From: Asticcacaulis sp. MM231
GTDB taxonomy: Bacteria > Pseudomonadota > Alphaproteobacteria > Caulobacterales > Caulobacteraceae
Direction of reading: 5' to 3'
DNA: 64,000 bases
Assembly (NCBI RefSeq): GCF_964186625.1
Contig: NZ_OZ075108.1
Location: 1,984,001 to 2,048,000, forward strand
The notes below the pieces were generated by a model. It saw only the letters and a program-made list of their open reading frames with translations. It had not been told where the DNA came from and searched no databases. Shown piece by piece: positions 7,653 through 48,993 of the stretch; positions within the stretch are counted from its first letter, which is position 1; every line of letters begins with the position of its first letter. The position numbers and the translations under genes are program-made.

Positions 7653-8568
7653 TTAAACGCCGCCCGTCATCGAAGCCACTTCGGCCGCGAAGTCTTCAAC
7701 CGGCTTCTCGACGCCTTCGCCGAGGGCGAGACGCGTGAAGGCCACGATCTTGACCGGGGTGCCGAGGGTCTTGGCGGTCTCTTCGATCAGTTGCTCGACG
7801 GTCTGATCCGGGTTCATGACGAAGGCTTGCTTGTGCAGCACGACTTCTTCGTAGAACTTGCGGATGCGGCCTTCGATCATCTTCTCAATGACCTGCAGCG
7901 GCTTGCCGGATTCCTTGGCCTGTTCCGTCAGGACCGACTTTTCGCGCTCGACGTGTTCCTGGTTCAGGTCTTCGACGTTCAGCGACAGCGGCTGCGTGGC
8001 GGCCACGTGCATGGCGACCTTGCGGCCCACGTCCTTCAGCACGTCCGGATCACCGGCCAATTCGATGGCGACCAGAACGGCGATGCGGCCGAGATCGGGC
8101 GCAATGGCGTTGTGGATGTAGGAAGCGACAACGCCTTCCGAAACGGTATGCTTGGCGAAGCGGCGCACAACCATGTTTTCACCGATGGTGGCGATCAGGT
8201 TGGTCAGGTCAGCCGACACGGCTTCGGCGACGCCTTCCACCGAGTTCAGCGGCCAGGCCAGCCTGGCCAGCTTGACGCACAACGTTCTGGAACAGGTCAT
8301 TGCGGGCAACGAAGTCGGTTTCAGCGTTCACTTCAACGGCGGCGGCGGTCATGCCCTTGCCTTCAACCTTGGTGGCGATGACGACGAGGCCTTCGGCGGC
8401 GACGCGGTCGGCCTTCTTGGCGGCCTTGGACAAGCCCTTGGCACGGAGCCAATCCAGGGATGCGTCGATGTCGCCGGCATTCTCGGTCAGCGCCTTCTTG
8501 CAGTCCATCATGCCTACGCCCGACTTTTCGCGCAGTTCTTTCACCAGGGCGGCTGTGATCTCAGTCAT
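7653..8568 (-). CDS. tsf: Translation elongation factor Ts, with an apparent 1-base frameshift
   Basis: EF-Ts recycles EF-Tu by exchanging GDP for GTP and is essential. As given, the frame is split. The N-terminal part (8568 to about 8248: [19 protein letters not shown], the UBA-like domain, then [11 protein letters not shown]) leaves frame near 8245. The rest ([16 protein letters not shown], then the C-terminal dimerisation part) continues in another frame to 7653. Removing one T from the GAGTTC at 8242-8247 joins them as [19 protein letters not shown], a sensible EF-Ts sequence of about 304 residues. Because the gene cannot be lost, I regard this as a sequence error rather than a pseudogene. 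The ATG at 8568 has a GGAGG site. Confidence 0.9.
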
Positions 8569-8636
8569 GAAATCCTCCAGAATCTAAAAGTTTAAAGTTT
8601 CACAGCCTGTGTAGGCCGCGATCATGTCAATTGAGC

Positions 8637-8682
8637 AACAGCTTAAAGCCGGCCAGAATTAAGTTGGCGACCTTAAGCTGTT
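8637..8682 (-). other. Inverted repeat in the rpsB-tsf spacer
   Basis: AACAGCTTAA and its exact complement TTAAGCTGTT lie 26 nt apart in the 161-bp spacer between rpsB and tsf. A second hairpin (GGCCAAC / GTTGGCC, 8697-8715) lies just after the rpsB stop. They could attenuate or stabilise the mRNA between the two genes; no T-run follows either stem. Confidence 0.4.
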
Positions 8683-8729
8683 ACAAGTCTCGTCAGGCCA
8701 ACGAGCGGTTGGCCCCTATATAGGAAGCC

Positions 8730-9512
8730 TTAGGCTTCGGTGGAAGCCTCAGCAGCGTCCTCGGCAACCAGGGCCGGCTCGATCGGATCAACCGAAGCGC
8801 CGAGATCGCGGCCGGAAGCCACTTGACCAGCGGCCAGACCGTCCAGAACCGAATCAGCGACCAGGTCGCAGTACAGTTGCAAGGCGCGGGCTGCGTCGTC
8901 GTTACCCGGAACCGGGAAGGTGATGCCGTCGGGATCGGAGTTCGAATCGAGGATAGCGATCACAGGAATGTTCAGCTTGCGGGCTTCCTGGATGGCGATG
9001 CCTTCCTTGTTGGTGTCGATCACGAACATCAGGTCGGGGATACCGCCCATATCCTTGATGCCGCCGAGCGACAGCTCAAGCTTTTCGCGTTCGCGCGTCA
9101 GGGTCAGCAGTTCTTTCTTGGAACGGCCGGCCGGATTGTTGTCGAGCACTTGCTCAAGTTCGCGCAGGCGGGCGATCGAACCGGAGATGGTGCGCCAGTT
9201 GGTCAGCGTGCCGCCGAGCCAGCGGTGGTTGACGTAATACTGCGCCGAACGCTTGGCAGCAGCGGCAACCGGACCTTGGGCCTGGCGCTTGGTGCCGACG
9301 AACAGCACGCGGCCACCGGCGGCGGCCACTTCACGCACCTTCAACAGGGCCTGATGGAACAGCGGCAGGGATTGCGACAGGTCGATGATGTGGATATTGG
9401 AGCGCGAACCGAACAGGTAGCGTTCCATCTTGGGGTTCCAGCGGTGAGTCTGGTGACCAAAGTGAGCGCCGGCTTCAAGCAGGAGGCGCATGGAGATTTC
9501 TGGCATAGCCAT
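8730..9512 (-). CDS. rpsB: 30S ribosomal protein S2
   Basis: Late-assembling protein of the 30S head and platform, needed for S1 binding. The 260-residue protein starts [21 protein letters not shown] and carries the S2 motifs [23 protein letters not shown] and [16 protein letters not shown]. The ATG at 9512 has an AAGGA site at proper spacing, while the in-frame ATG at 9506 does not. A Glu/Ala-rich tail of about 30 residues (ending [12 protein letters not shown]) extends beyond the E. coli length, as is common in alphaproteobacteria. It is followed by tsf. Confidence 0.97.
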
Positions 9513-9735
9513 AATGTAGTATCCTTCTTCCGATAATCCTCCGCAGATAGAAAAGCTTAGGCGGGCCCATGCCCGTTTCCGCCTCGGAACGCTATCGACC
9601 CGATTTAGGGAAGATGGCGCGCATCTGCGTGTGAGATGGCGTGCACCTATTCACAATTTCAAAAAAAATCAACCCGCCACGATAAGAAAAATCGAAAACT
9701 CTGCTGGATAAGACGATTGAGGCGCAAAAACGTGC

Positions 9736-12700
9736 CTAAACATCCTCATAATAAAGAACGCCGGTCATCTGCTTGAGCGCGCCACGCACATGGGCATCCA
9801 GATTATAACGTTGCGGCAGCTTGAACTCGATCTGCCCTTCGGAGCCCAGATCGCTGACCAGACTGATTTCGCCGCCCTTGTCAGAGCGCGCCACCTCAAG
9901 CTGGGCGCGCAGCTCAGCCAGATTGATCACCTGCGCCGAGACATGCACCTTGAGGCCCAGGTCGTCCGTTTTCAGCGTCGCCGACATCGGCCCCGCGTCA
10001 TCACCAAAGAAGCGCACCTCGCCGTCACGGCCCTTACTGCGCACCTTCAGCACAATGGACGCACCGACCTCAAGATGATCGCGGTTCTTGCGCAACGATT
10101 CCGGCGGGAATAGCACTTCATATTCACCACTTGGATCAGAGAGGGTTACGAAGGCAAACTTCTCCCCTGAGCCCTGCGCCGCCCGCTCCTGCTTGCGGCG
10201 GATAATGCCCGCCATACGGAAAGCCTCACGACCTTCGGAAGCCAGCGATACCGCATCGGCGTAAAGCGTCACATTGCGGCGTTTAAAAACATCGAGCATG
10301 TCCTGCAACGGGTGGCCGGACAGATAGAAGCCGATAGCCGCCAGTTCTTCATCTAGACGCGCAGGCCCTGAGACCATGGGCACCGTTGGCAAGCGCGGCC
10401 GTGAGGATTTATTGGAGCCGAACAGGCTGACCTGAGACGCGGCGCGATCGGCGGCGATGCTCTGGGCATAGGCGATCAGGATATCGGCGCCGGCCACGAT
10501 CTGGGCGCGGTTGGGATGGATGCCATCGAAAGCACCGGCCCGGGCCAGATTTTCCAGAGCGCGCTTGTTGACAGCCTTAGGATCTATACGTTCCAGGAAA
10601 TCGAACAGGTCGGTGAACTTGCCGCCCTCCTCACGCGCCTGGACAACACTGAGCATGGCTTCAAAGCCGACGTTGCGGATGGCGCCGAGCGCATACAGCA
10701 CCTCACCATCTTCAACGTCGAAATCGGCCATTGAGCGATTGATGTCAGGCGGACGGATGACGACATTGAAGCGCCGCGCATCCTGATAGAAGACGGCAAG
10801 CTTATCGGTGTTGGTGATATCGAGGCTGAGCGTGGCGGCGAAAAACTCGACCGGATAATTCGCTTTCAAATAGCCAGTTTGATAGGAAATGAAGGCATAG
10901 GCGGCGGCGTGCGATTTGTTGAAACCGTAGCCAGCGAACTTGTTGACGAGTTCGAAGATGAAATCAGACTGCTTTTCCGGCACGCCTTTTTCGGCCGCAC
11001 CGCTGATGAAACGCACCTTCTGCAGGTCCATTTCTTCTTTTTTCTTCTTACCCATGGCGCGACGCAGAAGATCGGCTTCACCGAGGCTGTAACCCGAAAG
11101 AACCTGAGCGATCTGCATCACCTGTTCCTGGTAGATGATAACGCCATAGGTTTCCTTGAGCACAGGCTCAAGGCTCGGATGCAGCATGTCGATGTCCGCA
11201 CGGCCAAACTTACGATCGACATAGGTGTCGATATTGTCCATAGGCCCAGGACGATAGAGCGAGATCAGAGCGGTGATTTCTTCCAGCGAACCACAGCGCA
11301 ACTTGCGCAGGGTATCGCGCATACCCTGACTTTCAAGCTGGAACACACCGATCGCCTGACCGGAGGCCAGAAGTTCATAGGTCGGGCCGTCGTCAAGCGG
11401 CAGGGTCGAATAGTTGATCTCGACGCCGCGCTTCTTGAGGTAGTTTTGGGCGCGCTTGAGCGTGGTCAGGGTTTTCAGACCAAGGAAGTCGAACTTGACC
11501 AGACCGGCGCTTTCCACCCATTTCATGTTAAACTGGGTGGCCGGAATGTCCGAACGCGGATCGCGGTAGAGCGGGACCAGTTCGGTCAGCGGGCGATCGC
11601 CGATCACGATACCGGCGGCGTGGGTTGAGGCGTTGCGATACAGGCCTTCCAGCTTGAGTGCCGTATCAAGCAGGCGCTTGACCGCTTCATCCTCGTTGCG
11701 CGCTTCTTTCAGACGCGGTTCGATCTCGATGGCCTGCGCCAGAGTGGTCGGGTTGGCCGGGTTGTTTGGCACCATCTTCGACAGGCGATCGACCTGTCCC
11801 AACGGCAATTGCATGACCCGCCCGACGTCGCGCAGCACGGCGCGCGCCTGGAGCGTACCAAAGGTGATGATCTGCGCCACGCGATCGCGGCCATATTTCT
11901 CCTGCACGTAGGAGATCACCTCTTCACGGCGCTCCTGGCAGAAGTCGATATCGAAGTCGGGCATGGAAACCCGCTCCGGATTGAGGAAGCGTTCAAACAG
12001 CAGACCAAAGCGCAGAGGGTCCAGATCGGTAATGGCCAGCGACCACGCCACCAGCGAGCCGGCACCCGATCCCCGCCCCGGTCCGACCGGAATATCTTGC
12101 GCCTTACCCCATTTGATGAAGTCCGAAACGATCAGGAAGTAGCCGGGAAATCCCATCTTCTGGATGATGCCGATCTCACGTTCGAGGCGCGCCCAGTAGT
12201 CTTCCTGCGGAAAGGCCAGCTTGACCTGGCTCAGGCGCAGCTTAAGGCCTTCGCGGGCCTGATAGGCCAGTTCTTCATCTTCGTTACGGCCGGCGCCGGT
12301 ATCGAAACGCGGCAGGATCGGATCGCGCTTGTTGACGAGAAACGCGCAACGGCGGGCGATTTCGAGCGTGTTATCGCAGGCCTCCGGCAGATCGGAGAAC
12401 AGTTCGCGCATCATGACCGCCGGCTTGAACCAGTGTTCCGGCGTCACCTTGCGGCGTTCTGCCTGGCCCATATAGGCGCCATCGGAAATACACAGAAGCG
12501 CTTCATGGGCTGAGTAGAGATCGCGCGAGGTAAACTGCACATCATTGGTCGCCACCAGCGGCACATCATGGGCATAGGCAAACTCCACCAGCCCTGCCTC
12601 GGTATCGCTGCCCTTGATGCCGCCTTGCGGAGAACCATCGTGGCGCTGCAGTTCGATGTAAAAACGATCCTTGAAGACGTCCTTCATGGTTTGAAGCGCA

Positions 12701-13185
12701 ATCTTCGCTTCATCACCACGATTCTGGCGATAAAGCACATCGACAGGGCCATCGAAACCGCCGGACAACAGGATCAGGCCTTCGCTGTAGGTCGCCACCT
12801 GTTCCCATGTGACATGAGGTTCGTCTATGGCATTGGCCTCGACATAGGCGATCGACGACAGCTTGGTGATGTTGAGATAGCCCTGCTCGTTCTGGGCATA
12901 GAGCGCGACGGTCGGGATCTTGCCCCAGCGCTCTGTCGGCACCCCGCCAATACCTTTGACCGGCATGGAACAGGCCACGATCGGCTGAACGCCGCTATCC
13001 TTGCACGACTGGGAAAATTCGAGGGCGCCGTAGAGATTACAGCGATCCGCCATCGCCACCGCCGGCATGTTCAGCTTGTGCGCCATCTTGCCCAGGTCAT
13101 AAGCCTTGATGGCGCCCTCCAGCAGCGAATAGGCCGATTTGACACGCAGATGAACAAACTGTCGGCTCATGTCGGCTTCGCTCAT
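9736..13185 (-). CDS. dnaE: DNA polymerase III subunit alpha
   Basis: Catalytic subunit of the replicative polymerase, 1149 residues, full length for the family. The order is an N-terminal PHP domain ([17 protein letters not shown]), a C-family palm with [18 protein letters not shown] and the catalytic PDFDIDF, a fingers and tandem helix-hairpin-helix region with [11 protein letters not shown] and [16 protein letters not shown], and a C-terminal OB fold near residue 1000. Length and domain order match the replicative DnaE rather than the mutagenic ImuC/DnaE2. The ATG at 13185 follows an AGGAG site. Its 5' region is unusually rich in repeats (see 13361-13457). Confidence 0.97.
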
Positions 13186-13360
13186 GGCCCGGCTCCTGTG
13201 GATGGCTTACTGCCCGGTATCCGCGCGACTCACGCCGCCAGCGACATCACATGGCATAGAACGAAGACAAAACCCGTTACGGCGACAAATGACAACATGT
13301 TATGCAGGGCGCTGACCATTTTTCCACAATCCTATCTTGATGTCCCTTCCGGGACCGCTT

Positions 13361-13411
13361 GTTTCTCTTATGTTCTCAATTCTTGCTTTGTTCTATATTC
13401 GCCTTTTGTTC
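13361..13411 (-). promoter_or_regulatory. Three phased GAAC-N7-GAAY repeats over the dnaE promoter
   Basis: On the minus strand three 15-bp units, each GAAC-N7-GAAT or GAAC-N7-AAAC, occupy 13411-13397, 13393-13379 and 13375-13361. They are exactly 18 bp apart. The alphaproteobacterial LexA box is GTTC-N7-GTTC, whose complement is GAAC-N7-GAAC, so each unit matches one half fully and the other nearly. They overlap the candidate promoter. Regulation by LexA or another tandem-binding repressor is inference. Confidence 0.5.
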
Positions 13412-13420
13412 CACGCGCAA
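13392..13420 (-). promoter_or_regulatory. Candidate sigma-70 promoter of dnaE
   Basis: Minus strand: a -35 box TTGCGC (13420-13415), 17-bp spacer, and a -10 box TATAGA (13397-13392). The predicted transcript has a leader of about 200 nt. A separate perfect palindrome, TGTTCTC-CTAT-GAGAACA, lies upstream at 13440-13457. Confidence 0.45.
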
Positions 13421-13476
13421 GCCAGATTCTGTTCTCCTATGAGAACAAAATGACAAGCTGTTGATAAGACAGTGAA

Positions 13477-14193
13477 TTAAACGGTAGCGTGAACGTCCAG
13501 AGGCACAAGCACGCCATCTACCAGCTTGACCACGCGGTCCATATGCCGGGCCAGTTCGAGGTTATGGGTGGCGATCAGCGCCCCTACCCCTTGCGCCTTG
13601 ACGATGGTTTTCAGCGCGCCAAACACCTGCGTCGAGGTTTCCGGATCCAGGTTGCCGGTCGGTTCATCGGCCAGCAACAGGCGCGGCTTATTGGCCAGGG
13701 CGCGCGCAATGGCGACGCGCTGCTGTTCGCCACCCGAAAGTTGCGCCGGCTGGTGATCGAGACGTTCGCCCAGTCCCAGCGCGGTCAACAATTCCCGGGC
13801 GCGCGCCTCGGCTTCTTTGCGCGGACGACCGAGAATACGCAACGGCACAGCCACATTGCCAACCGCCGTATATTCCGGCAGCAGGTGATGGAACTGATAG
13901 ACGAAGCCGATCTTTTTCAGACGCGCCGCCGTGCGCTGACGGTCATTGGCACCGGCGAAATCCTCGCCATCGATGATCAGGCGTGTGTTCGGCGCGGCTT
14001 CCAGCAGCCCGACCGCGTGGAGCAAAGACGACTTGCCGGAGCCGGATGGCCCGACCAGACCAACCAGTTCTCCCGGTTGCACCTCAAGGTCAACGCCCTT
14101 GAGCACGGCCAGTTTGCGACCATCACCGATGGTATAATCGCGGTGCAGCCCCTTGAGGCTGAGGGGCAAATTACTCATAGCGCCATTATTCAT
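13477..14193 (-). CDS. lolD: Lipoprotein-releasing ABC transporter ATPase LolD
   Basis: ATPase that powers extraction of lipoproteins from the inner membrane for transfer to LolA. It has 238 residues with Walker A GPSGSGKSS near residue 48, the Q-loop in FVYQFHHLLPEYTAVGNV, the signature LSGGEQQRVAIARAL and Walker B LLLADEPTGNL. The ATG at 14193 overlaps the end of the permease gene and has a GGAGG site. An internal ATG at 14178 is the alternative. It is paired with a single permease gene, as in many alphaproteobacteria where LolC and LolE are not separate. Confidence 0.94.
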   Translation of the reverse strand: MNNGAMSNLPLSLKGLHRDYTIGDGRKLAVLKGVDLEVQPGELVGLVGPSGSGKSSLLHAVGLLEAAPNTRLIIDGEDFAGANDRQRTAARLKKIGFVYQFHHLLPEYTAVGNVAVPLRILGRPRKEAEARARELLTALGLGERLDHQPAQLSGGEQQRVAIARALANKPRLLLADEPTGNLDPETSTQVFGALKTIVKAQGVGALIATHNLELARHMDRVVKLVDGVLVPLDVHATV

Positions 14194-15472
14194 AACGGAG
14201 CGCCTCCACGGGTTCGAGCTTGGAGGCCCACAAGGCCGGGAAGAAGGTCGAGAGACAGGCCGCCAGGAAGGAGGCGATCACCACGAAAGCGACCTCGGTC
14301 GGCTCCATCTTGGCCGGCACGGCATCGAGATAATAGACGCTCGGATCGAACAGCTTGGTGTGGAACACCCACTCCAGGAAATGCTGGATGTCCCCGATAA
14401 AGGTGCAGAACAGCACGCCGAGCAACAGGCCGCAGGCGGTGCCGGCCGCGCCGATGGTGGTGCCGGCGATGAAGAAGATGCGCAGGATGGAGGAACGATC
14501 CGCCCCCATGGTGCGCAGGATAGCGACGTCGCGCGTCTTGTTTTTCACCAGCATGACGATGCCCGAAATGATGTTGAGCATAGCGATGATGACGATGAAG
14601 AACAGAATGAAGCGCATAGCCGTGCGCTCGATCTTGAGCGCGCTCCATAGCGAGGCATTGATCTCTTTCCAGGTGTAGACAACTGCGCCCGGACCGGCGG
14701 CAGCGGCGACGCCATCGTGGTATTTTTCAATGTCGAAAGGCTTCTTCACCTTGAGTTCGATCACGTCCCATTCGTCTTCACGATCGAAGAAAAGCTGGGC
14801 CTGCGTGATCGGCATAAAGATAAAATTCTTGTCGATATCGCTGACACCGCTGCTGAAAATACCGCCGACCGTATAGGCCTTACGGCGCGGTGCGGCGCCA
14901 AAGGCGGTCGAGCCGCCCGGCGTCATCAGGGTGATTTCATCGCCGGCGTTGATGCCGAGATTTTGCGCCAGATCGTCACCGACCAGCACATTATCGCCGC
15001 CATATTCGCCGACACCAAAGCTATCCAGTGAACCGCCCTTCTGAATGTGGTCGGCGACAATCTTCGTGCCTTTGAGAACATCCGGCGCCACACCGCGCAT
15101 GATAGTGGCCTGGGTTTCACCGTGCGTACTTTGCACCAGTCCGTATTGATCGATATGCGGGCTGACCTCGGTAACGCCCGGCACCGCCCGCAGGCGCTTC
15201 AGGGTTTCGTCACGATGCGCAAAATCATTGAGCGGGGCACCGGAGACATATTCATGCCCCCCGAAAGCCAGCAGGCGCGATACCATCTCGTCGCGGAAAC
15301 CGTTCATGACCGACAGCACGCTGATCAGCGCCGTCACCGCCAGCATGATCCCGACAAACGAGATGATGGCGATGACGGCGATACCGCCATCCTTGCGCTT
15401 GGTACGCAGATACTTCATGGCGAGGTCAAACTCCCAGGCCTTGAAACGGAACAGCGACAGCACAGCCCCCAT
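14186..15472 (-). CDS. Lipoprotein-releasing ABC transporter permease (LolC/LolE type)
   Basis: Inner-membrane permease of the Lol system, 428 residues. There is one N-terminal membrane helix (IAVIAIISFVGIMLAVTALISV), a large periplasmic MacB-like domain, and three C-terminal helices with the FtsX-type core. The cytoplasmic coupling motif AILRTMGADRSSILRIF is conserved. Only one permease gene is seen, so a homodimer with LolD is likely. It starts 6 bp after the proS stop and overlaps lolD, which suggests a proS-lolC/E-lolD operon. Confidence 0.93.
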   Translation of the reverse strand: MGAVLSLFRFKAWEFDLAMKYLRTKRKDGGIAVIAIISFVGIMLAVTALISVLSVMNGFRDEMVSRLLAFGGHEYVSGAPLNDFAHRDETLKRLRAVPGVTEVSPHIDQYGLVQSTHGETQATIMRGVAPDVLKGTKIVADHIQKGGSLDSFGVGEYGGDNVLVGDDLAQNLGINAGDEITLMTPGGSTAFGAAPRRKAYTVGGIFSSGVSDIDKNFIFMPITQAQLFFDREDEWDVIELKVKKPFDIEKYHDGVAAAAGPGAVVYTWKEINASLWSALKIERTAMRFILFFIVIIAMLNIISGIVMLVKNKTRDVAILRTMGADRSSILRIFFIAGTTIGAAGTACGLLLGVLFCTFIGDIQHFLEWVFHTKLFDPSVYYLDAVPAKMEPTEVAFVVIASFLAACLSTFFPALWASKLEPVEALRYE

Positions 15473-15477
15473 GGGTT

Positions 15478-16791: not shown

Positions 16792-16959
16792 GAGGAGAAT
16801 CCGTTATTATTGAGCGAAGTGGCGCGAACAGTAGAACCTCATGCCTAAAAGTGGAAGGCACTTTTTGGATAGACATGAGGTGGACAGAAAAGAATGTAAC
16901 GCCTTATGCGTGAAGCGTTTTGCGCAGGCATTGCGGCGATTTTTGGATCAGGGGCAAAA

Positions 16960-17441: not shown

Positions 17442-17470
17442 ATCGTCTCCGCCGCTGGCTGCCCTGCGGT

Positions 17471-23665: not shown

Positions 23666-24025
23666 ATGGAACAGACAGACATCACCGCGCGCCTGCACCG
23701 CCTCGCCACCGAGCTTCTCGACGCCTATGAGCGGATCGACGCCCCCTCGACCTATCTCGAAGCCGAACGCGCCGCCAGGGCCCTGATCGCCATCGGCAAG
23801 GCGGTCAGCGCGGCGTCCGGTGAGCCGGCGCCGCCGAAAGCCTCATCCAAAGAACCTGGCAAAGAACCTGCCAAAGCCCCCGCATGTGCGGAGGTCAAGA
23901 CGGACACGCCACCCAAGGTGGTGGTTCCCTCACCGGCCCTGACGCTGGAACGTGCGGCCAAGGCGCTTATGAGGGGCGATCTGGAGACGTTCGAGGCGCT
24001 TATGCCGCAACCGCCGCCCGTTTAG
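23666..24025 (+). CDS. Hypothetical protein with Pro/Lys-rich linker
   Basis: 119 residues from the ATG at 23666 (the frame also offers a TTG 6 bp earlier). An N-terminal helical part (ITARLHRLATELLDAYERI, then EAERAARALIAIGKAV) is followed by a linker rich in Pro, Lys and Glu with repeated KEP units, and a short C-terminal helix. No family recognised. Its TAG stop overlaps the stop of the convergent membrane gene, so the two 3' ends share bases. Confidence 0.6.
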   Translation: MEQTDITARLHRLATELLDAYERIDAPSTYLEAERAARALIAIGKAVSAASGEPAPPKASSKEPGKEPAKAPACAEVKTDTPPKVVVPSPALTLERAAKALMRGDLETFEALMPQPPPV

Positions 24026-24829
24026 TCGCCTCCGCCACCGCAGCCACTTCCGCAGCCCGAACTGCTGCATCCAGAGTCGCCGCCGCCAGAGTTCGTGACC
24101 TGAGTCGTGACCAGAGTGGTGATCTGAGGAATTGCTGGTGGAGCATCCGCTACCGCCGCAGCCGCTGCTATCGTTATTGTTGCGCTTGCCTTTCTCCTGC
24201 TTTTTGGCACTCGTTACGGCAAAGATGACGATACAAACCAACAAGAAGATGTAGAAGACAAGCCCGCCATCGAGTTTGAACGGCAGGTGCATCCCTTCCA
24301 GTTTGCACCCTGCCAGCAGCAGCGGCAGCCCGGCTGTGAGGCATAAAAAAACCTGCCGCTTGGGCAGGATGATGTGGGTGGATCTATCGACAGACTTGCG
24401 AGGGGGCGGACTGAACCGTGTCGCCGCATCGGGCCATAAGGCCGGTGGTGGTGGCCCGAACACCTCTTCATAAAGGCTCAGGGTGCGGCGGTAGCAAGTC
24501 AGGTAGGTGTCGGCTTCTACAGCCCCGCCCTTGGTCGGGCCGTGGTGGATCTTGCGGCCGAGGGTTTGCCCGCAAAAGCGATCCCAGTAGTCCCGCGTGT
24601 AGAGGAGGTGGAGGTGCCAAACGGCGTCGATCTCTTCCGAGGGCGTAAGCACCGTGCCGGATGTGCAGATCAGATAGATAAAACGTTTGTAGTCGGCGAT
24701 GGCCGCAAGAGCGAAGCTATGGGACCAGTCATTATCCCGCGCCAGCCGGCGGCTAAAGGGTAACGCAGCGTCGGCTGCGTCGATCTCGTAGGCGTTTATG
24801 GCCTGCCAAAGGGCCGTGTCTGTTAGCAT
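24022..24829 (-). CDS. TIGR04222/glycine-rich-domain membrane protein, with an apparent 1-base frameshift
   Basis: Residues 1-140 hold the conserved module of glycine-rich domain proteins (EEIDAVWHLHLLYTRDYW, then DTYLTCYRRTLSLYEEVFG). One or two membrane helices (VFLCLTAGLPLLLAGC and LVFYIFLLVCIVIFAV) and a charged stretch follow. The tail is made of Gly, Ser, Cys, His and Asp. As given, the frame shifts at GAGTTC (24089-24094). Removing one T gives a tail of the form GHDSGGGDSGC ending in GCGGGGD and a TAA at 24022, about 268 residues, exactly as these proteins usually end. Without correction it reads through as Arg-rich junk to 23930. Start ATG at 24829 has a GAGGAG site. Function unknown. 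Confidence 0.8.
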
Positions 24830-38539: not shown

Positions 38540-38544
38540 TTTGA

Positions 38545-39135: not shown

Positions 39136-39207
39136 TTGTTTTATATCCCTTACCGCCGTTTCAGGCTGATATTTCTTAAGAAGGCTTATCCACAGACACC
39201 CCTTCTC

Positions 39208-39855: not shown

Positions 39856-39985
39856 CAACGATCACTCCGAATTTCGATATGGAAATTCGGCAAGGCCGAC
39901 TGGCCGCCGCGTACTTTTACGCGTAAGCCCGCGTGGCGCTTGAACGCAAAAGAAAAGCTTGATTGTCTATGGTTTGCCATAGCGA

Positions 39986-40513
39986 TCAAGCATCATCAGA
40001 CGGCGAAATATCCTGCTCGCCCAGCCCTTGCTTGATGTCGCGCGGATCGTCGATCACCTCATTGCTCAGGCCTTCGTCGCCGAGGAACTTGGCGAAATCG
40101 GAGGTCTCGCGGAAGTCACGATAGACCGAGGCGTAACGGACATAGGCCACGACATCGAGCGATTTCAGCGCTTCCATGACCAGGCCTCCGACCGTATCAG
40201 AGGTGATGTCGGTCTCACCCATGCTCTCAAGCTGACGGACGATGCCCGACACCATGCGGTCGGTGCGTTCCTGATCGACCGGCCGCTTGCGCATGGCGAT
40301 GGCGACCGAACGCTCCAGCTTGGTGCGATCGAAGGGCGTGCGCCGTCCCGAGCGTTTGACCACCATCAGATCGCGCAGTTGCACGCGCTCAAAGGTGGTG
40401 AAGCGCCCGCCGCATTCCGAACAGGACCGGCGGCGGCGGATGGCCGCGCCGTCTTCGGAAGGACGGGAATCCTTCACCTGGGTCTCAAGGTTTCCGCAAA
40501 AGGGACAGCGCAT
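39986..40513 (-). CDS. nrdR: Transcriptional repressor NrdR
   Basis: Regulates ribonucleotide reductase genes in response to ATP/dATP. The 175-residue protein has the N-terminal zinc ribbon (CPFCGN with [12 protein letters not shown]) and an ATP-cone ([19 protein letters not shown]). An acidic tail of about 25 residues extends past the family core. It sits 13 bp after glyA, as in many bacteria where nrdR joins the ribD cluster. Confidence 0.96.
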
Positions 40514-40526
40514 TATGTGTTACCGA

Positions 40527-41831
40527 TCAGCTATATATCGGGAACTGTTGCGTGAGAGCCTTAACCGAAGCGCGCACCTTTTCCTGAACAGCGAGATCGG
40601 GCTTGCCCTCATTGGCGGCCATGCCGTCCACCACATCGGCGATCAGGTTGCCGATGATGATGAATTCCGCTTCCTTGAAGCCGCGGGTGGTGCCGGCGGG
40701 GGTGCCGAGACGAACGCCCGAGGTGATGGTGAAGGGCTTGTCGTCGAACGGGATGCCGTTCTTGTTGCAGGTGATGAAGGCGGCTTCGAGGGCGGCCTCG
40801 GTGTCCTTGCCGTTCTGGCCCTTGGGGCGCAGATCGACCGACATGACGTGGCTGTCGGTGCCGCCGGTGACGATGGCCAGACCGCGCTCAACGAGCGTGG
40901 CGGCCAGGGCGCGCGCATTGGCGACGACCTGCTGGGCGTAGAGCTTGAACTCAGGCTGCAGGGCTTCACCGAAGGCCACGGCCTTGCCGGCGATGACGTG
41001 CATCAGGGGGCCGCCTTGCAGGCCGGGGAAGACCGACGAGTTAATCTTCTTGCCGAGCGCTTCGTCGTTCGACAGGATCAGGCCGCCGCGCGGGCCGCGC
41101 AGGGTCTTGTGCGTGGTGGTGGTGACGACGTGGGCGTGCGGCAGCGGATCGGGATACATGCCGCCAGCAACCAGACCGGCATAGTGGGCCATGTCGACGA
41201 ACAGATAGGCGCCGACCGAATCGGCGATTTCACGGAAGCGCTTGAAATCGATGTGGCGCGGATAGTTGGAGGCGCCGGCGATGATCAGCTTCGGCTTGTG
41301 CTGCTGGGCCAGGTCATTGACCTGATCCATGTCGATCAGGTTGGTGTCGCGCGTCACGCCGTAAGGCACAACGTTGAACCACTTGCCCGACTGATTGGCG
41401 GGCGAACCGTGCGTCAGGTGACCGCCGCAGGCCAGATCCATGCCCATATAGGTGTCGCCCGGCTGGAGCAGCGAGAAGAAGACGGCCTGATTGGCCTGGG
41501 CGCCGGAGTGCGGCTGGACGTTGGCGAAGGCACAGTTGAACAGCTTCTTGGCGCGTTCGATGGCGAGACGCTCGACGTCATCGGCGTATTCGCAGCCACC
41601 GTAGTAGCGACGGCCTGGATAGCCCTCGGCGTACTTGTTGGTGAGCACCGACCCTTGCGCTTCCAGAACGGCCTTGGAGACGATGTTTTCCGAGGCGATC
41701 AGTTCGATCTGGTCCTGCTGGCGATGCAGTTCGCCGGTGATGGCGGCCATGACTTCGGAATTGGCGGTCGCCAGATTGTCGTGGAAATAGCCTTGCGGGA
41801 TGAAGGAGCCGGGGTTCGCGGGTGCGTTCAA
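40527..41831 (-). CDS. glyA: Serine hydroxymethyltransferase
   Basis: PLP enzyme that interconverts serine and glycine and feeds one-carbon units to tetrahydrofolate. The 434-residue protein has [28 protein letters not shown], and the PLP-lysine motif [18 protein letters not shown]. The start is a TTG at 41831 with an AGGA site; no ATG is available before the conserved N-terminus. It leads the minus-strand nrdR-rib cluster. Confidence 0.95.
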
Positions 41832-41952
41832 GGGAGCGATTCCTGTGCTGGAGAAAGGGATGGAGGGAATATGGGGAGCGTTTACGCTTATCGACAGGGT
41901 GAGGCAAGGTTTTTAAGCTTTTCGCCCGCCAAAAGCCCCTCATCAGACACGG

Positions 41953-42153
41953 TCACACCAGCTTGCCACGCCCGTCAGGCGCAGGCGTATTGCCTTTGAG
42001 TTTGTTCTGCAGCTTGAGGATGGCCAGGCGCTTGACGCTGCCCGGATCATTGGCCGGCCCCATGGCGGAGGCTTCTGTGCCGGTCTGCGGGTCAATGGCG
42101 GTGACCTTCAGATAGGCGCCATTGCGCTGCATTTCGATGAAGACTTCGGACAT
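41953..42153 (-). CDS. DUF6898 family small protein
   Basis: A 66-residue soluble protein: a short strand-rich start (FIEMQRNGAYLKVTAIDPQTGTEAS) and a helical end (VKRLAILKLQNKL). It resembles the small alphaproteobacterial family DUF6898 found beside hemA or glyA. Function unknown. Confidence 0.7.
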   Translation of the reverse strand: MSEVFIEMQRNGAYLKVTAIDPQTGTEASAMGPANDPGSVKRLAILKLQNKLKGNTPAPDGRGKLV

Positions 42154-42262
42154 GACGCGGATTGTGTCTCAAGCGCTATAAGAATGCAAGAAACCCACCC
42201 CACATCTAACCACTGCGCGGTTTGTGCGCCCCCTCCCCAACACGTGGGTAGGTGTAAGAACG

Positions 42263-43486
42263 TCAGGCCACCGCCGGCAGGCGCGCGACGTTGCACATCG
42301 TCCAGAGCTTATCCATCGAGGCCACCAGATGATCGATCATCTCGTCGGTGTGGTCCGGTGATGGCGTGAAGCGCAGGCGCTCGGTGCCCTTGGGCACGGT
42401 CGGGTAGTTGATCGGCTGGACATAGATGCCGAAGTCGTTGAGCAGCATATCCGACACCATCTTGCAGTGCTTGGCGTTACCGACCAGCACCGGCACGATG
42501 TGTGATTCCGTCGGGAAGGTAGCGATGCCGACAGCGCGCAGCTTTTTCAGCAGGCTTTGTGCGCGCTCCTGATGGGCAATGCGCTTTTCATTGTGCTCTT
42601 TCAGATACTTCACCGAAGCAGCGGCGCCGGCCATCACGGCGGGCGGCAAAGAGGTGGTGAAGATAAAGCCCGATGCCCACAGGCGGATGGCATCGACCAT
42701 GGCCGAGGTGCCGGCGATATAGCCGCCCATCATGCCGAACGCCTTGCCAAGCGTGCCTTCGATGATGTCGATCTCGCCCATGATGCCGTCACGCTCGGCG
42801 ACACCGGCGCCGCGTTCGCCATAAAGGCCGACCGCATGCACTTCGTCGATATAGGTCAGCGCACCATACTGTTTGGCCAGGGCCACGGTGCCGCGCACGT
42901 TCGAGATATCGCCATCCATCGAATAGACCGACTCAAACGCGATCAGCTTCGGGGCGTCAGCCGGCGCAGCCTTCAAAAGTTCTTCAAGATGGTCGAGGTC
43001 GTTGTGACGGAAGACGTGGCGCTCGCCGCGGCCATTGCGTATGCCCTGGATCATCGAGGCGTGGTTCAGTTCATCGGAGAAGATGATCAGGCCCGGCAGG
43101 ATCTTGTAGAGCGTGGTCAGGGTCGCTTCGTTGGCGACATAGCCGGAGGTGAAAACGAGTGCGGCCTGCTTGTGGTGCAGGTCGGCCAGTTCGGCTTCGA
43201 GCTGGTTGTGATAGAAGGTGGTGCCGGAAATATTGCGCGTGCCGCCCGAACCGGAACCGACCGCGTCAATGGCCTCGTGCATGGCCTGCATCACGACCGG
43301 ATTTTGCCCCTGTCCGAGATAATCGTTCGAGCACCAGACCGTGACGTCCCGCTCCTTGCCGTCTTCGCGGATCCAGGTGGCGCGCGGAAACTGACCGGCA
43401 TGACGCTTCAGATTGGCAAACACGCGATAGCGCCCTTCGGCGCGAACGGCGTTGACGGCGGCCTCGAAAGCGGCATTGTAATCCAT
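42263..43486 (-). CDS. hemA: 5-aminolevulinate synthase
   Basis: Condenses glycine and succinyl-CoA to 5-aminolevulinate, the C4 (Shemin) route to heme that marks alphaproteobacteria. The ATG at 43486 ([11 protein letters not shown], 407 residues) has a GGAG site; the frame runs on to 43555 without support. PLP-binding Lys248 lies in [18 protein letters not shown], and the substrate loop [14 protein letters not shown] is intact. hemB is about 1.4 kb away on the other strand. Confidence 0.97.
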
Positions 43487-43681
43487 ATCACACTCCGGCG
43501 GCCTCACTCGGAACCGCAAATCTGACCGGCGAAATAGCGCTTTGCCAGCCCCCATTCAAGTCCACAGGGATTAAAATAACCCTGACGACAGCATTGATAC
43601 TCACCTTGTGACATATTCGTTCAAATTTCCAGAGTTTTTGCTATGACAGGTTTGCGCAGATTGTCGCATGTAAGGTGACCG

Positions 43682-44224
43682 ATGTCGAAAGTGTGGATTG
43701 GCCTGTTTCGCGGCATCAATGTCGGCGGCAACAATAAGCTGCCGATGAAGGACCTGACGCGGTTGATGCTGGCGGCGGGCTTAAGCGATGTGAAGACCTA
43801 TATCGCCAGCGGCAATGTGCTGTTTCGCTCTGACTTAGATGACGCGGCGCTGGAAGCCCTGATCGGCGATCTGGTCGAAACCAACTTCGGCTTTCGACCG
43901 TCGGTTTTCCTGATCACCTTGTCGCATCTGGAAAAGGTGCTGGCGGAAAATCCTTTCCGCGACCATGCGCACAAGGGCAAGGCGCAGCACGTCTTCTTCT
44001 TCAAAGCGCCGCCGTCGAAGATTGATCGTGACCTGCTCGACAGCCTGAAAGACGACAGCGAAGCCTATGAGATTAGCGATGAGCTGATGTATCTCTATGC
44101 GCCGGAAGGCATCGGCCGCTCTAAGATGGCCGAGAAGATCGGTCGCGCCATCAAGGCCGATATGACCGCCCGCAATCTCAACACGGTCGAGACTTTACAG
44201 GATATGGCGATGGAGCTTTCCTGA
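43682..44224 (+). CDS. DUF1697 family protein
   Basis: A 180-residue protein with the family start WIGLFRGINVGGNNKLPMKDL and the FKAPPSKIDRDLLDSL / MYLYAPEGIGRSKMAEKIG motifs. The structure is known to be ferredoxin-like in the family but no function is established. Divergent from hemA. Confidence 0.9.
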   Translation: MSKVWIGLFRGINVGGNNKLPMKDLTRLMLAAGLSDVKTYIASGNVLFRSDLDDAALEALIGDLVETNFGFRPSVFLITLSHLEKVLAENPFRDHAHKGKAQHVFFFKAPPSKIDRDLLDSLKDDSEAYEISDELMYLYAPEGIGRSKMAEKIGRAIKADMTARNLNTVETLQDMAMELS

Positions 44225-44677
44225 TTACAGGCACCCGGCCTCGTCTTCAGTTCCCCAGGCTTCGAGCAAGCGGTGCTGATCGTCAAATCTCACCACAACT
44301 TCAAAATGTAGGGAACAGGGCAGCCCTCCTACGGACTTCTCATAAAATTGGCTATCAGCCGGAAATGATTTGGGCTTACTCCACGAAAAGGCTTTATCCG
44401 TGTCAGTCGTGTATTTTGCCTTCGATAAGTGACGAAGAACGTCGCTTTCAGGATCGCCGATCTTGAAGGGTTTAGGTGTCAGTGCAATCGCCTTTCCCCA
44501 TTCATGACTACCGTTCCGGATCGTCCGCGTGATAGCATCATTCGGTTTGGTTACTTCAGAATAAACGATCAAACCCAATAGGATTGTCGACTGCCTGAAC
44601 TGCGCATTTAATGTGAACAGCACTGTAAATCCGATGAGCACGGATATCATCAACAGGAATATTGGACGCTTTTTCAC
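44225..44677 (-). CDS. Hypothetical membrane-anchored protein
   Basis: About 150 residues with one N-terminal membrane helix (PIFLLMISVLIGFTVLFTLNA) and a soluble C-terminal domain that ends CSLHFEVVVRFDDQHRLLEAWGTEDEAG. No family is recognised. The start is uncertain. I used the GTG at 44677, whose ribosome binding site would be a run of nine G on the minus strand (44682-44690). A TTG at 44704 lies in frame. Its base composition is lower in G+C than the neighbours. Confidence 0.55.
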   Translation of the reverse strand: MKKRPIFLLMISVLIGFTVLFTLNAQFRQSTILLGLIVYSEVTKPNDAITRTIRNGSHEWGKAIALTPKPFKIGDPESDVLRHLSKAKYTTDTDKAFSWSKPKSFPADSQFYEKSVGGLPCSLHFEVVVRFDDQHRLLEAWGTEDEAGCL

Positions 44678-44760
44678 GGTTCCCCCCCCCACGGACGTCG
44701 TCAAGATGCCATTCTTTTATAGATTGGCGCGCAATTTGTCGATCTTGAGCGCTGGTCCAC

Positions 44761-44871
44761 TCTCCTCCCTACGCAGTGGGGAGGTGGCATTTGCGCAGCA
44801 AATGACGGAGGGGCGCCCCTCCAGCGCTATGCGCCACTTCCCCATCACGATGGGGAGGAGATTTCTGTTCC
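44761..44871. repeat. 111-bp palindromic intergenic element upstream of hemB
   Basis: A long imperfect palindrome: CTCCTCCC...GTGGGGAGGTGGC on the left and GCCACTTCCCCATC...GGGGAGGAG on the right, meeting at a perfect 16-bp centre GGAGGGGCGCCCCTCC (44807-44822). It resembles the other CTCCCC-rich elements of the window. Confidence 0.75.
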
Positions 44872-44931
44872 CAAGCTTGAAGCCGCACTACAAACGGCCT
44901 AAAGGTCGGCAATCATTTGAGAGTACGCCAT

Positions 44932-45933
44932 ATGACCTTCAATCCGATCCTTGCCCCCTATCCTGCCGGTCGCCCACGGCGTTTGCGCCAGGCGCCATGG
45001 ATACGCGATCTGGTGGCGGAAAACCGCCTGCACGTCTCCGATCTGATCTGGCCGATCTTTGTCCACGATCAGGACAAGGCGCGCGACGCCATCGGTTCCT
45101 TACAGGGCGTCGACCGCCTGAGCATCGCTGAAGCGGTGAAGGAATTGCGCGAAGCAAGAGCCTTGGGAATCAATGTCATAGCGCTGTTTCCTCACCTCAA
45201 TGCGAAGATCCGCAGCGCGGACGCCAAGGCCGCCATCGACCCCGAAGGCCTGATCGTGCAGGCCTGCCGCGCCATCAAGGCCGCCGTGCCGGATATCGGT
45301 CTGCTGGTCGATATTGCGCTCGATCCCTATACCGATCACGGCCATGACGGCCTCTTGATCGACGGGCGGATTCACAACGACGCCACCATCGACATGCTGG
45401 TGCAGCAATCGCTGGCGCTCACTGCCGGCGGCGCCGATATCCTGGCGCCATCCGATATGATGGACGGCCGCATCGGCGCCATCCGCACCGCGCTGGAAGC
45501 CGCCGGCCATCAGGACACGATGATCATGTCCTACGCCGCCAAGTACGCCTCGGCCTTCTACGGCCCCTACCGTGACGCGATCGGCGTGAAAGCCCTGAAA
45601 GGCGACAAGAAGACCTACCAGATGGATTCGGCCAATACCGAGGAAGCCCTGCGCGAGGTCGCCATCGATATTTCCGAGGGCGCCGACATGGTGATGGTCA
45701 AGCCCGGTCTGCCCTATCTCGATATCGTCCAGCGGGTCTCACACACCTTCAGGGTGCCGACCTTCGTCTATCAAGTCAGCGGCGAATACGCGATGATCAA
45801 AGCGGCGGTCGAAAAAGGCTATATGGACCACGACCGCGGCGTCATGGAAACCCTGCTGGCCTTCAAACGCGCCGGCGCGTCCGGCATCCTCACCTATTTC
45901 GCCAAGCATGTGGCCGAACTTCTGAAAGCATGA
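44932..45933 (+). CDS. hemB: Delta-aminolevulinic acid dehydratase (porphobilinogen synthase)
   Basis: Joins two 5-aminolevulinate molecules into porphobilinogen. The ATG at 44932 (MTFNPILAPYPAG) gives 333 residues. The metal site reads DIALDPYTDHGHDG, the aspartate-rich form that replaces the zinc cysteines of the animal enzyme. The Schiff-base region is MVMVKPGLPYLDIV. It overlaps the next gene by 4 bp. Confidence 0.96.
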   Translation: MTFNPILAPYPAGRPRRLRQAPWIRDLVAENRLHVSDLIWPIFVHDQDKARDAIGSLQGVDRLSIAEAVKELREARALGINVIALFPHLNAKIRSADAKAAIDPEGLIVQACRAIKAAVPDIGLLVDIALDPYTDHGHDGLLIDGRIHNDATIDMLVQQSLALTAGGADILAPSDMMDGRIGAIRTALEAAGHQDTMIMSYAAKYASAFYGPYRDAIGVKALKGDKKTYQMDSANTEEALREVAIDISEGADMVMVKPGLPYLDIVQRVSHTFRVPTFVYQVSGEYAMIKAAVEKGYMDHDRGVMETLLAFKRAGASGILTYFAKHVAELLKA

Positions 45934-46481
45934 CCATGACCCTACCTTCAGACATCCGCACCGAACTGTATGAAGCCATGACGGCGAACACCTATGTGCG
46001 CCTGTCGCTGCCGGAAGGCGAACATGAGGGCTTTATCGTCGGCTTGAGCAAGCAACTGGTACTGCTGCAGGCCATCCACGAGTGGCAGGACGTCGGCGCC
46101 CTGATCGCGCCGGTGGAGAGCATCGAGGCTTGCGAGGTGTCGGAATTTCACGACGCCCAGATCCGAATTCTCGACTTCAACAGCGTCAAGCGCACCAAGC
46201 GCTATAGCTGGGTCAAGCTAGGCAGTTACGAAGAGTTGTTCAAGTCGCTGAAATTCAAGAACAAGTTCGTGGTCGTGTCGCTGGAAGACGACGCCGATGT
46301 CGGTCAAATCGATTCGATCGAAAAGGACAGCGTCGATCTCAAGGCGGTCGATCCCGGCGGCAACTGGATCGAGGAAGCGCTCGATTGTCCCTATGAGGAA
46401 ATTACGCTGGTCCAGTTCGATGACAGCTATAGCCGCACCCTGCAACGTTATGTCGAACGCACCTCGGCAACGCTGAACTAG
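45930..46481 (+). CDS. Hypothetical protein, coupled to hemB
   Basis: 183-residue soluble protein, mixed alpha/beta with many acidic residues (VVSLEDDADVGQIDSIEKDSV). No family recognised. It overlaps hemB by 4 bp and is probably co-translated. Its TAG stop lies at 46479-46481, inside the CTAG target duplication of the neighbouring IS701-type element, so two insertion sequences landed at this gene's stop codon without changing the protein. Confidence 0.75.
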   Translation: MTMTLPSDIRTELYEAMTANTYVRLSLPEGEHEGFIVGLSKQLVLLQAIHEWQDVGALIAPVESIEACEVSEFHDAQIRILDFNSVKRTKRYSWVKLGSYEELFKSLKFKNKFVVVSLEDDADVGQIDSIEKDSVDLKAVDPGGNWIEEALDCPYEEITLVQFDDSYSRTLQRYVERTSATLN

Positions 46482-47912
46482 CACTACTTTGGCAGAAAAT
46501 GAATTTTGAGGATTCCCCCGGCTGACATTGCGTGATTCATAGAGAGCCAGCTTTAAGGAGACTGGCGATGTCGGAACATTGGCGCGTAGATTTGGAAGAT
46601 TGGTTGACGCCCTTCCTGGTGGCCTTGCGGCATAAGACCCGGATGCGGCTGTGCCCTGCCTATATTGCAGGCCTGATTGGCCCGGGTGACCGCAAGAGTG
46701 TCCAGCCGATGGCCGCCCGCGATGGCGAGTTTGGCTATGACCAACTCCATCATTTTGTCTCTGACGGCGTTTGGGAAAGTGGACCGCTTGAAGCCGTTCT
46801 CCTGAAGGAGGCCGACCGTCTGGTGGGGGATGATGCCGGTTATCTTGTCATCGATGACACGGCGCTGCCGAAAAAGGGCAGCCATTCGGTTGGCGTGGCG
46901 GCGCAATATGCTTCCTCGCTTGGCAAGACGTCCAACTGCCAGTCGCTTGTTTCGGTGACGCTGGCATCGCGCGAAGTGCCTGTGATGGTGGGCCTGCGCC
47001 TGTTCTTGCCCGAGAGTTGGACGAATGATGTCGCGCGGATGAACCGGGCTCGGGTCCCGCAAGAATGCCAGGTTGCCCTGACAAAGCCGGAGATCGCCAT
47101 TGAGGAAATTGATCGTGTTATAGCCTCTGGGGCCCGGTTCGGGTGCGTGCTGGCCGATGCTGGCTATGGGTCAAGCGGGCCGTTCCGCGAGGCCCTGAGC
47201 AAGCGCGACCTGTTGTGGGCCGTCGGCATATCACGGCGTCAGAATGTGTATCAGGCAGACGTCGGCCTAATCTTCCCGGAAGCGGCAACCGGAAGGCGGC
47301 GCAAATACCATGTCCCTGACGATGTTGCTGTCTCTGCCGAAAAGATGTTGGCTGATGGGAAATGGAAGAAAGTAAGTTGGCGGCGCGGAACCAAAGGCAA
47401 GCTGAACTGCCAGTTTGCCGCTTGCCGCGTTCGGGTCGCAGATGGCCACAGGCATCGTATGAGCGACGGTCGTGTCCAAGCCATGCCTGGCGAGGAGGAG
47501 GTCTGGCTGGTCGGGGAAAGGCGTTCAACCGGAGAACAGAAATACTACCTGTCAAACCTGCCTGCCGACGCCCCCCTCAAGATGCTAGCCGCGGCTATCA
47601 AGGCAAGGTGGATCTGCGAACAGGCACATCAGCAACTCAAGGAAGAGCTTGGGCTTGATCACTTCGAAGGCAGGTCATGGACCGGTTTGCACCGACATTG
47701 TCTAATGGCGATGATCGCTTTTGCATTTCTCCAATCCCGCCGCCTCAAAGCAGCGGGACGAAAAAAAAAGTTGGGGGGCCACCGCCTCAGCCGACAATGC
47801 CCGCCATCCGCCAGGCCATTCTCGACCTCTTCATGCGACCGCCACCAAGGCGCTGTCCCCACTGTGACAAACGCCTCGCCGAGCCCGCCAAGAATAATAT
47901 GCCAAAGTAGTG
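46482..47912 (+). mobile_element. IS701-family insertion sequence (1431 bp)
   Basis: Bounded by perfect 13-bp inverted repeats CACTACTTTGGCA / TGCCAAAGTAGTG and by direct CTAG duplications at 46478-46481 and 47913-47916. A YTAR target of 4 bp is typical of IS701. It contains one transposase gene. Confidence 0.9.
46568..47910 (+). CDS. IS701 family transposase, needs a -1 shift near its end
   Basis: DDE transposase from the ATG at 46568 (MSEHWRVDLEDWLTPFLVAL) with an AAGGAG site. Catalytic acids lie in YLVIDDTALPKKGSHSVG, CVLADAGYGSSG and the late EELGLDHFEG. The zero frame runs out of the element to 47971 as unrelated sequence. From the A9 run at 47761-47769, the -1 frame gives the expected tail (GGPPPQPTMPAIRQAIL, then RRCPHCDKRLAEP) and stops at 47908-47910 inside the terminal repeat. 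A AAA AAG in the correct phase would allow programmed -1 shifting, but a one-base homopolymer error explains it equally well. Confidence 0.85.
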
Positions 47913-48993
47913 CTAGTGTTGTGACTTTAACGCCTGTCGCCCCCTGGCGACCTTTTCAAGAATGTCTGTAGCGGATTTGGTCCAAACGAAGGGCTTTGGA
48001 TCGGCGTTGTGATGATCGAGATAGTCTTGAATTGCGCCTTCGAGTTCGGCGACACTCTTGAACACGCCGCAGCGGATGCGATCGCCTGTTATCAAGCCGA
48101 AAAAGCGTTCGACCTGATTGAGCCAGGACGCCGAAGTGGGGGTGAAATGCATGTGGAAGCGAGGATGTTTGGCCAGCCATGCTTTGACCGCCGGATGCTT
48201 ATGGGTGGCATAGTTGTCGGCGATCAGGTGCAGGTCGAAGCCCTTGGGCGTGCTGCGGTCGATGAGTTCGAAGGAATTTGAGCCATTCCTGGTGCCGATG
48301 ACGTTTCATGCATTCGCCGATCACCCTGCCGGTGGCGACATCGAGGGCGGCGAACAGTGTCGTCGTGCCATGCCGCTTATAGTCGTGGGTCATCGTTCCC
48401 GCCCGCCCCTTCTTCATTGGCAGGCCCGGTTGGGTGCGGTCCAGCGCCTGGATCTGTGACTTCTCATCGACCGAGAACACCAGTGCCCGGTCCGGCGGAT
48501 CAAGATAGAGACCGACGACGTCCGTCACCTTCTCGACGAACTGCTTGTCGTTCGACAGTTTGAACGTCTTGGTCAAATGGGGCTTGAGCCCATGCGCGCT
48601 CCAAATGCGCTGTACGCTGGTGTGGCTCAGACCCACCGCCTTGGCAAGCGTGCGCGCGCTCCATTGCGTGGCAGCCGGTGGCTTCTGTCGCAGCGTCATC
48701 TCGACCACACGCGCAATGACTTCGGCGCTCAACGGCGTCTTACGGCCAGGCCGGGTCGCGTCGCGCCCAAGCCCATCGACACCCTGCTCAAGATAACGAT
48801 CGCGCCAGCGGTAGGCCGTCTTCTTGGTCTTGCCCAGCGTCCGCACAATCGACGCCAAACTCGCCGCGTCCGCCCACATCAGCACGATCCGCGCACGCCA
48901 AACAAGCTTCTGCGGCGTGTTCCGGTCCGCCACCCAACCTTCCAACCGCACCCGAGCCTCAGGCGACAGCAACAGCCTTTTGTCCATGTCCAT
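47913..48993 (-). CDS. IS630 family transposase, with an apparent 1-base frameshift
   Basis: Mariner-like DDE transposase from the ATG at 48993. The N-terminal half shows a helix-turn-helix ([22 protein letters not shown]) and [15 protein letters not shown]. At 48264-48269 the frame slips; removing one T from GAGTTC restores [12 protein letters not shown] and then [35 protein letters not shown] and the end RQALKSQH. The TAG stop is formed from the duplicated TA target and one flanking base. With the correction it would be about 359 residues, normal for the family. Confidence 0.88.

What the first reader, a model, noticed from the sequence alone, without database searches (positions are those of the whole stretch)
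8242..48269. All three one-base breaks are the same event: GAGTC read as GAGTTC, a CcrM (GANTC) site
Seen: three unrelated reading frames (tsf, TIGR04222-like, IS630 transposase) are each repaired by deleting one T from GAGTTC on the plus strand. Known: Caulobacterales methylate the adenine in GANTC with CcrM, and nanopore base callers make systematic errors at methylated motifs. Inference: these are methylation-linked sequencing errors, so the genes should be treated as intact, and other GAGTTC or GAACTC sites in this genome should be suspected. Not every site is affected, since intact GAGTC occurs at 24074, 24102 and 18681.
Basis: partly seen in the sequence, partly recalled or inferred. Interest (0 to 1): 0.75.

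Follow-up and report, generated by a model that had tools for sequence, protein, structure and literature searches.

The report
Nanopore misreads at methylated GANTC sites
Three apparently broken genes in this freshwater bacterium are very probably intact: a nanopore-only assembly seems to have misread a short DNA word that the cell chemically marks, and the same misreading has left many more errors in the published genome, most of them hidden because they do not break a reading frame.

Summary
In 386 kb aligned to a 95%-identical relative (G017), 109 of 696 GANTC sites of G017 carry the error signature in this genome; in reverse 14 of 560 do. One-base indels at GANTC: 21 of 696 against 0 of 560; at 12 control motifs together 16 of 17,624 against 15 of 17,708. 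The excess substitutions ignore codon position (24/38/23 against 637/319/4334), as miscalls would. Eighteen IS630 copies repeat the test: six of seven variable columns lie in GAGTC/GACTC sites. A CcrM-type methylase gene is present. Corrections: the insertion is the minority outcome; the main error is GAYTC read as AAYTC, which breaks no frame. Most GAGTTC/GAACTC words look genuine (107 of 145 identical in G017). The TIGR04222 label was not confirmed. Errors at GANTC are already in print for Agrobacterium. No reads were examined, so methylation as the cause is inferred.

The parts
8242..8247 (.). GAGTTC inside tsf; GAGTC in G017; the EF-Ts frame is broken in this assembly
7653..8568 (-). tsf (EF-Ts), split into 8209-8568 (N-terminal piece, 119 aa) and 7653-8309 (C-terminal piece, 218 aa)
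   Evidence: one whole frame in the 11 relatives aligned
24089..24094 (.). GAGTTC in the Gly/Ser/Cys-rich tail of an uncharacterised protein; intact GAGTC at 24074 and 24102
   Evidence: whole frame in G017 (L154); position of the shift inferred, not aligned
   Evidence: larger piece without Pfam or NCBIfam match at 1e-3
48264..48269 (.). GAGTTC inside the IS630-family transposase; of 18 copies 15 read GAGTC, one GAGTT, two have the extra T
47913..49060 (-). IS630-family element, one of 18 near-identical copies in this genome; transposase split into 48199-49023 and 47913-48152

Best explanation
The three breaks are consensus errors of a nanopore-only assembly at GANTC sites methylated by the cell's CcrM-type adenine methylase. 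Shown: the assembly departs from its relative at GANTC far more than the relative departs from it, which 12 control motifs do not show; the excess changes ignore coding constraint; the platform is published. Inferred: N6-methyladenine disturbs the pore signal so that G-mA is read as AA or GAA, mostly on the strand carrying GAYTC after C or A; where those reads outweigh the other strand's, the error enters the consensus and polishing keeps it. Seen from the other strand GAACTC is GAGTTC. By extrapolation from a 386-kb sample about 13% of GANTC sites are wrong beyond background, roughly 1,100 in 4.65 Mb; about one in five is an indel that breaks a frame if coding.
For: 696 GANTC sites of G017 give 216 substitutions, 19 insertions (17 of one base) and 4 deletions in G000; 560 sites of G000 give 102 substitutions and no indel in G017 (Fisher for indels 1.3e-6). 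First G to A 56 v 9, last C to T 44 v 13. One-base indels at 12 control motifs: 16 of 17,624 v 15 of 17,708, 7 of the 16 touching a GANTC. Codon positions 24/38/23 v 637/319/4334 for background changes of the same type; synonymous share 28 of 85 (33%), against 27% (GAYTC half) or 20% (both halves) expected without selection and 86% in real background. Word scan without a prior: the two most depleted 5-mers are GACTC (165 v 224) and GAATC (412 v 498). 18 IS copies: 6 of 7 variable columns in GAGTC/GACTC sites. tsf, which I recall as essential, is hit. CcrM-type gene, 372 aa, whole, CcrMI structure 6pbd at 4e-189. Contig lengths and total length equal MM231: R10.4.1, super-accurate calls, Medaka model sup_v4.2.0, no short reads. 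G013, equal in length to nanopore-only ZE23SCel15, shows the same signature against G014: 22 of 187 v 4 of 161, p 0.0009. Agrobacterium: GANTC among the error motifs, and fewer errors with later models than with v4.2.0, mostly at predicted methylated motifs.
Against: No reads and no amplified control were examined, so methylation is inferred. Not all one-base insertions in genes fit: of 25, 15 lie in a G017 GANTC site, 3 or 4 more only by my reading of G000, three are homopolymer runs, two are in poorly matching stretches and one is none of these. Strand clustering of errors was weak (49 of 81 pairs within 3 kb of one class, shuffle p 0.0475, one of eight ranges tried). In 12 control-motif tests on three pairs two reached p below 0.05: GTNAC in the main pair, 48 of 1048 v 30 of 1047, and GTNTC in G019/G022. 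The CcrM-type protein scores below NCBIfam's CcrM cut-off (628 v 830). A second methylase of unknown target is present. G017's platform is only guessed from its ~100 contigs. G000's CGATTC density is not extreme in the genus, only low beside G017.
Confidence: 0.95

Rival explanations
1. Real mutation: GANTC sites are hypermutable or counter-selected in this lineage, and the broken genes are pseudogenes or phase-variable.
For: G000 has fewer GANTC words than G017 over the same DNA (560 v 696 counted), which real site loss would also give; tied differences at two IS sites (Fisher p 0.004) could be two true IS lineages.
Against: The substitutions show no third-position bias, tsf is whole in the 11 relatives aligned, insertions recur at the same sites in several IS copies, and a second nanopore-only genome shows the same asymmetry.
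Confidence: 0.02
2. Ordinary nanopore homopolymer or random indel errors that happen to fall in GAGTTC.
For: Three of 25 one-base insertions in G017 genes are at T or A runs.
Against: GAGTC holds no homopolymer, and one-base indels hit 21 of 696 GANTC sites against 16 of 17,624 sites of 12 control motifs.
Confidence: 0.01
3. GANTC is misread for a reason other than CcrM: another modification of the same word, or a base-caller bias present even in unmethylated DNA.
For: Methylation was not measured; a second methylase of unknown target is present, and methylase families other than PF01555 were not searched.
Against: All four N are affected, matching the specificity given for CcrM, and later models reduced errors mostly at predicted methylated motifs in Agrobacterium.
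Confidence: 0.05

Closest known systems
GANTC-linked errors in nanopore-only Agrobacterium assemblies (PMC12710330; passages and section 6 seen)
   Same: Alphaproteobacteria, GANTC as an error motif, errors higher with the v4.2.0 model than with later ones
   Different: Those authors had short reads; the counts I saw, 23 to 43 errors per genome on average, are for the later v5.0.0 model. Here about 1,100 are extrapolated, and outcome words and the worse half-site are described
Methylation-linked errors in nanopore assemblies of Brucella and other genera (PMC12392509; passages seen)
   Same: GANTC and a CcrM gene named beside assembly errors
   Different: Only two potential GANTC-related errors reported there
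Strand-specific base ambiguities at methylated sites, largely resolved by PCR (PMC11389150; passages seen)
   Same: Proposed mechanism: one strand misread, the consensus decided by read frequencies
   Different: Other species; shown at read level there, not here
Modification-mediated errors corrected with relatives, Modpolish (PMC10687267; passages seen)
   Same: Close relatives used to reveal error sites and their motif
   Different: Listeria, motifs GCAGC and GCTGG

Membership tests
Methylation-linked nanopore consensus error | Errors concentrated at one short motif, in one genome and not in its relative | tested here: met
   109 of 696 v 14 of 560 GANTC sites; control motifs 16 of 17,624 v 15 of 17,708 one-base indels; control pair G018/G012 1 of 94 v 4 of 106
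Methylation-linked nanopore consensus error | Errors blind to coding constraint | tested here: met
   neutral expectation
Methylation-linked nanopore consensus error | Native-DNA nanopore data without short-read polishing | tested here: met
   Lengths match MM231; R10.4.1, Canu, racon and Medaka only. That the base-caller was v4.2.0 is inferred from the Medaka model
Methylation-linked nanopore consensus error | A methylase for that motif in the genome | tested here: met
   CcrM-type gene in L031; its activity was not tested
Methylation-linked nanopore consensus error | Opposite strands of reads disagree at the error | tested here: inconclusive
   No reads available; indirect clustering test weak
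Methylation-linked nanopore consensus error | Error vanishes after amplification or with short reads | not testable with these tools
   needs new or raw data
CcrM adenine methyltransferase | N6_N4 methylase domain followed by RAMA domain | tested here: met
   PF01555 and PF18755 over their cut-offs
CcrM adenine methyltransferase | Near full-length similarity to CcrMI of known structure | tested here: met
   6pbd, residues 20-372 of 372, E 4e-189
CcrM adenine methyltransferase | NCBIfam NF050803 curated cut-off | tested here: not met
   628 bits against 830; the model's name suggests tuning to Caulobacter, so I say CcrM-type
CcrM adenine methyltransferase | Methylates adenine in GANTC | not testable with these tools
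   needs methylome data

The most novel reading that the evidence does not exclude
Finished nanopore-only genomes carry a readable imprint of their own methylome: comparing an assembly with a short-read relative recovers the methylase's target word without any reads, and the outcome word (AAYTC/GAAYTC here; GAGATC-type insertions in G019) points to the chemistry and base-caller. Public species representatives could be screened for methylase motifs and for false pseudogenes in one pass.
Probability: 0.45. Interest if true: 0.5.

Novelty: new member of a known kind. Interest (0 to 1): 0.35.

Why it matters
A published genome described as complete carries a systematic error that mimics gene loss, even in tsf, and by extrapolation about a thousand further wrong bases, most of them silent to frame checks though two thirds of the coding ones tested would change a residue (57 of 85). 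A second genome of the genus (G013) shows the same signature. Pseudogene counts, studies of GANTC frequency, dN/dS and strain typing in CcrM-bearing Alphaproteobacteria are at risk where assemblies are nanopore-only with older models.

Tried and rejected
One search aligned the IS copies without turning minus-strand hits; its output is void and was replaced. That only GAGTC/GACTC is hit was suggested by the IS copies and rejected. Programmed frameshifting of the IS630 transposase was rejected, since 16 of 18 copies have one long frame. That the T-run at window 28637 is a fourth broken gene was rejected on my reading of the frame's upstream part. Strand clustering of errors stayed inconclusive. 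G019/G022 was meant as a clean control, but it gave 10 of 219 v 3 of 200 (p 0.09) with GANTC insertions of another kind in G019; G018/G012 was then used and is small (55,408 bases aligned). CGATTC counts in 25 genomes gave G000 1405 and G017 1990, reversed-word controls 907 and 905; per megabase G000 is not the lowest of the genus.
Full report
What was checked. The protein at 24022-24829 is one frame in G017; its tail does not align base by base at the site, so the place of the shift is inferred. Its larger piece matched no Pfam or NCBIfam family at 1e-3. The IS630 element has 18 near-identical copies in the genome; two have the extra T, one has GAGTT, fifteen have GAGTC.

The internal experiment. 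In the alignment of the 18 copies (1,150 columns, the first 9 and last 12 left out) seven columns vary. Six lie in, or flush with, three GAGTC/GACTC sites and the seventh is the base next to a GAATC. Two further sites, GAATC and GATTC, are intact in all 18 copies. Outcomes are insertion, deletion, and change of the first G or last C. At the two end sites only 8 and 7 of 18 copies read GACTC, and no copy reads both so (Fisher p 0.004 on a table I drew up). That fits one strand being misread at each site and the majority strand differing between copies, but two true IS lineages could also tie the two substitutions together.

The genome sample. 464 kb of G000 (20 stretches and the window) was aligned with 400 kb of G017, giving 385,874 aligned bases at 94.9% mean identity. 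With flanks required to match at 16 of 20 bases, 696 GANTC sites of G017 gave 457 unchanged, 216 substituted, 17 one-base insertions, 4 one-base deletions, one +10 and one +2; 560 sites of G000 gave 458 unchanged, 102 substituted and no indel. Counting only the signature (first G to A, last C to T, both, or a one-base indel) it is 109 of 696 against 14 of 560; with a looser flank rule and without the double change it is 109 of 707 against 13 of 570. Twelve control motifs had one-base indels at 16 of 17,624 sites one way and 15 of 17,708 the other, and 7 of the 16 touch a GANTC. For the substitution signature four control motifs were tested on each of three pairs; two of those twelve tests reached p below 0.05 (0.049 and 0.043), against 2.3e-17 for GANTC in the main pair.

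Word scan without a prior. The most depleted 5-mers in G000 are GACTC and GAATC and the most enriched is AATTC (z about 3 each). Among spaced words CGANTCG was the most depleted; others without GANTC reached z of 2.2 to 2.5 among many thousands tried, so a weaker second motif is not excluded.

Why errors and not mutations. First-G and last-C changes at G017 sites fall 24, 38 and 23 at codon positions 1, 2 and 3, with 57 nonsynonymous and 28 synonymous; 18 more are outside the frames used. Ordinary changes of the same type fall 637, 319 and 4334. The synonymous share, 33%, is near the 27% expected with no selection on the GAYTC half (20% for both halves) and far from 86% in real divergence. Genes for this test were mechanical frames in G017 kept by length and third-position bias (305 frames).

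What the error looks like. On the strand where N is A or C, GAATC becomes GAATT 44 times against 5 in reverse, GACTC becomes AACTC 25 against 2, and GACTC becomes GAACTC 10 against 0. So the half-site GAYTC is the one mostly misread, as AAYTC or GAAYTC, most often after C or A. GAGTTC is GAACTC seen from the other strand. Most GAGTTC/GAACTC words look genuine: of 145 in the sample 107 are identical in G017, 10 correspond to GAGTC/GACTC, 24 are substituted and 4 have other indels.

Frames. Of 38 frame-changing indels inside mechanical G017 genes, 25 are +1 and 8 are -1; 15 and 2 of these lie in a G017 GANTC site. Three or four further +1 cases become GANTC in G000 alone by my reading. The remaining +1 cases are three homopolymer runs, two in poorly aligned stretches and one other. 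Some mechanical genes reach beyond the real start, as at window 28637.

Source of the data. Contigs of 3,458,694 and 570,284 bp and the total of 4,647,610 bp equal those of Asticcacaulis sp. MM231 (whole text of PMC11556081 read): R10.4.1, super-accurate calls by MinKNOW v23.07.5, Canu, racon and Medaka with model r1041_e82_400bps_sup_v4.2.0, 43.65x, no short reads mentioned. G013 equals in length ZE23SCel15, 3,774,217 bp (whole text of PMC10586169 read), also nanopore-only; against G014, whose platform I do not know, its signature is 22 of 187 versus 4 of 161. Control pair G018/G012 shows 1 of 94 versus 4 of 106.

Methylase. A 372-aa protein at L031 has the N6_N4 methylase and RAMA domains and matches CcrMI (6pbd) over residues 20-372; it falls short of NCBIfam's CcrM cut-off, so I call it CcrM-type. 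One other hit to PF01555 was found; other methylase families were not searched.

Literature. GANTC as an error motif in nanopore-only assemblies is in print for Agrobacterium and, for two errors, Brucella; strand-specific miscalls largely resolved by PCR are in print for other species. In the listings I saw no paper reporting the effect in Asticcacaulis; most of those papers I did not open. CcrM's target GANTC is stated in PMC12456177 (passages seen).

Size of the effect. The excess signature, 15.7% against 2.5% of sites, is roughly 92 sites in 386 kb; scaled to 4.65 Mb that is about 1,100. This is an extrapolation from one region of one contig.

Verdict. The finding is confirmed and ordinary in kind.

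Noticed in passing
L193-L202 (G019) compared with L183-L192 (G022): Four of 219 GANTC sites of G022 have a different inserted letter in G019 (GAGATC three times, GATCTC once), suggesting another chemistry or base-caller with its own miscall at the same motif.
   Followed up: partly
L032:1399-2346 and 2369-3721 (G000:C1 about 2,475,000): A second beta-class DNA methylase (RsrI/MboII-like by sequence) followed by a gene with a weak DndB match below its cut-off, possibly a modification or defence island; target unknown.
   Followed up: partly
window 7653-8568 and the whole window: tsf carries a further GANTC difference from G017 that does not shift the frame; 18 signature sites fall in the aligned part of the window, some of which will be true divergence.
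   Followed up: partly
G013:C1 (L163-L172): Whole-genome CGATTC count is low (802 against 1,130-1,221 in G002, G004, G009 and G014), which flagged this genome before its signature was tested.
   Followed up: yes
window 47913-49060 and 17 other places: Eighteen near-identical IS630-family copies, one of them on contig C3, point to recent expansion of this element in the strain.
   Followed up: no
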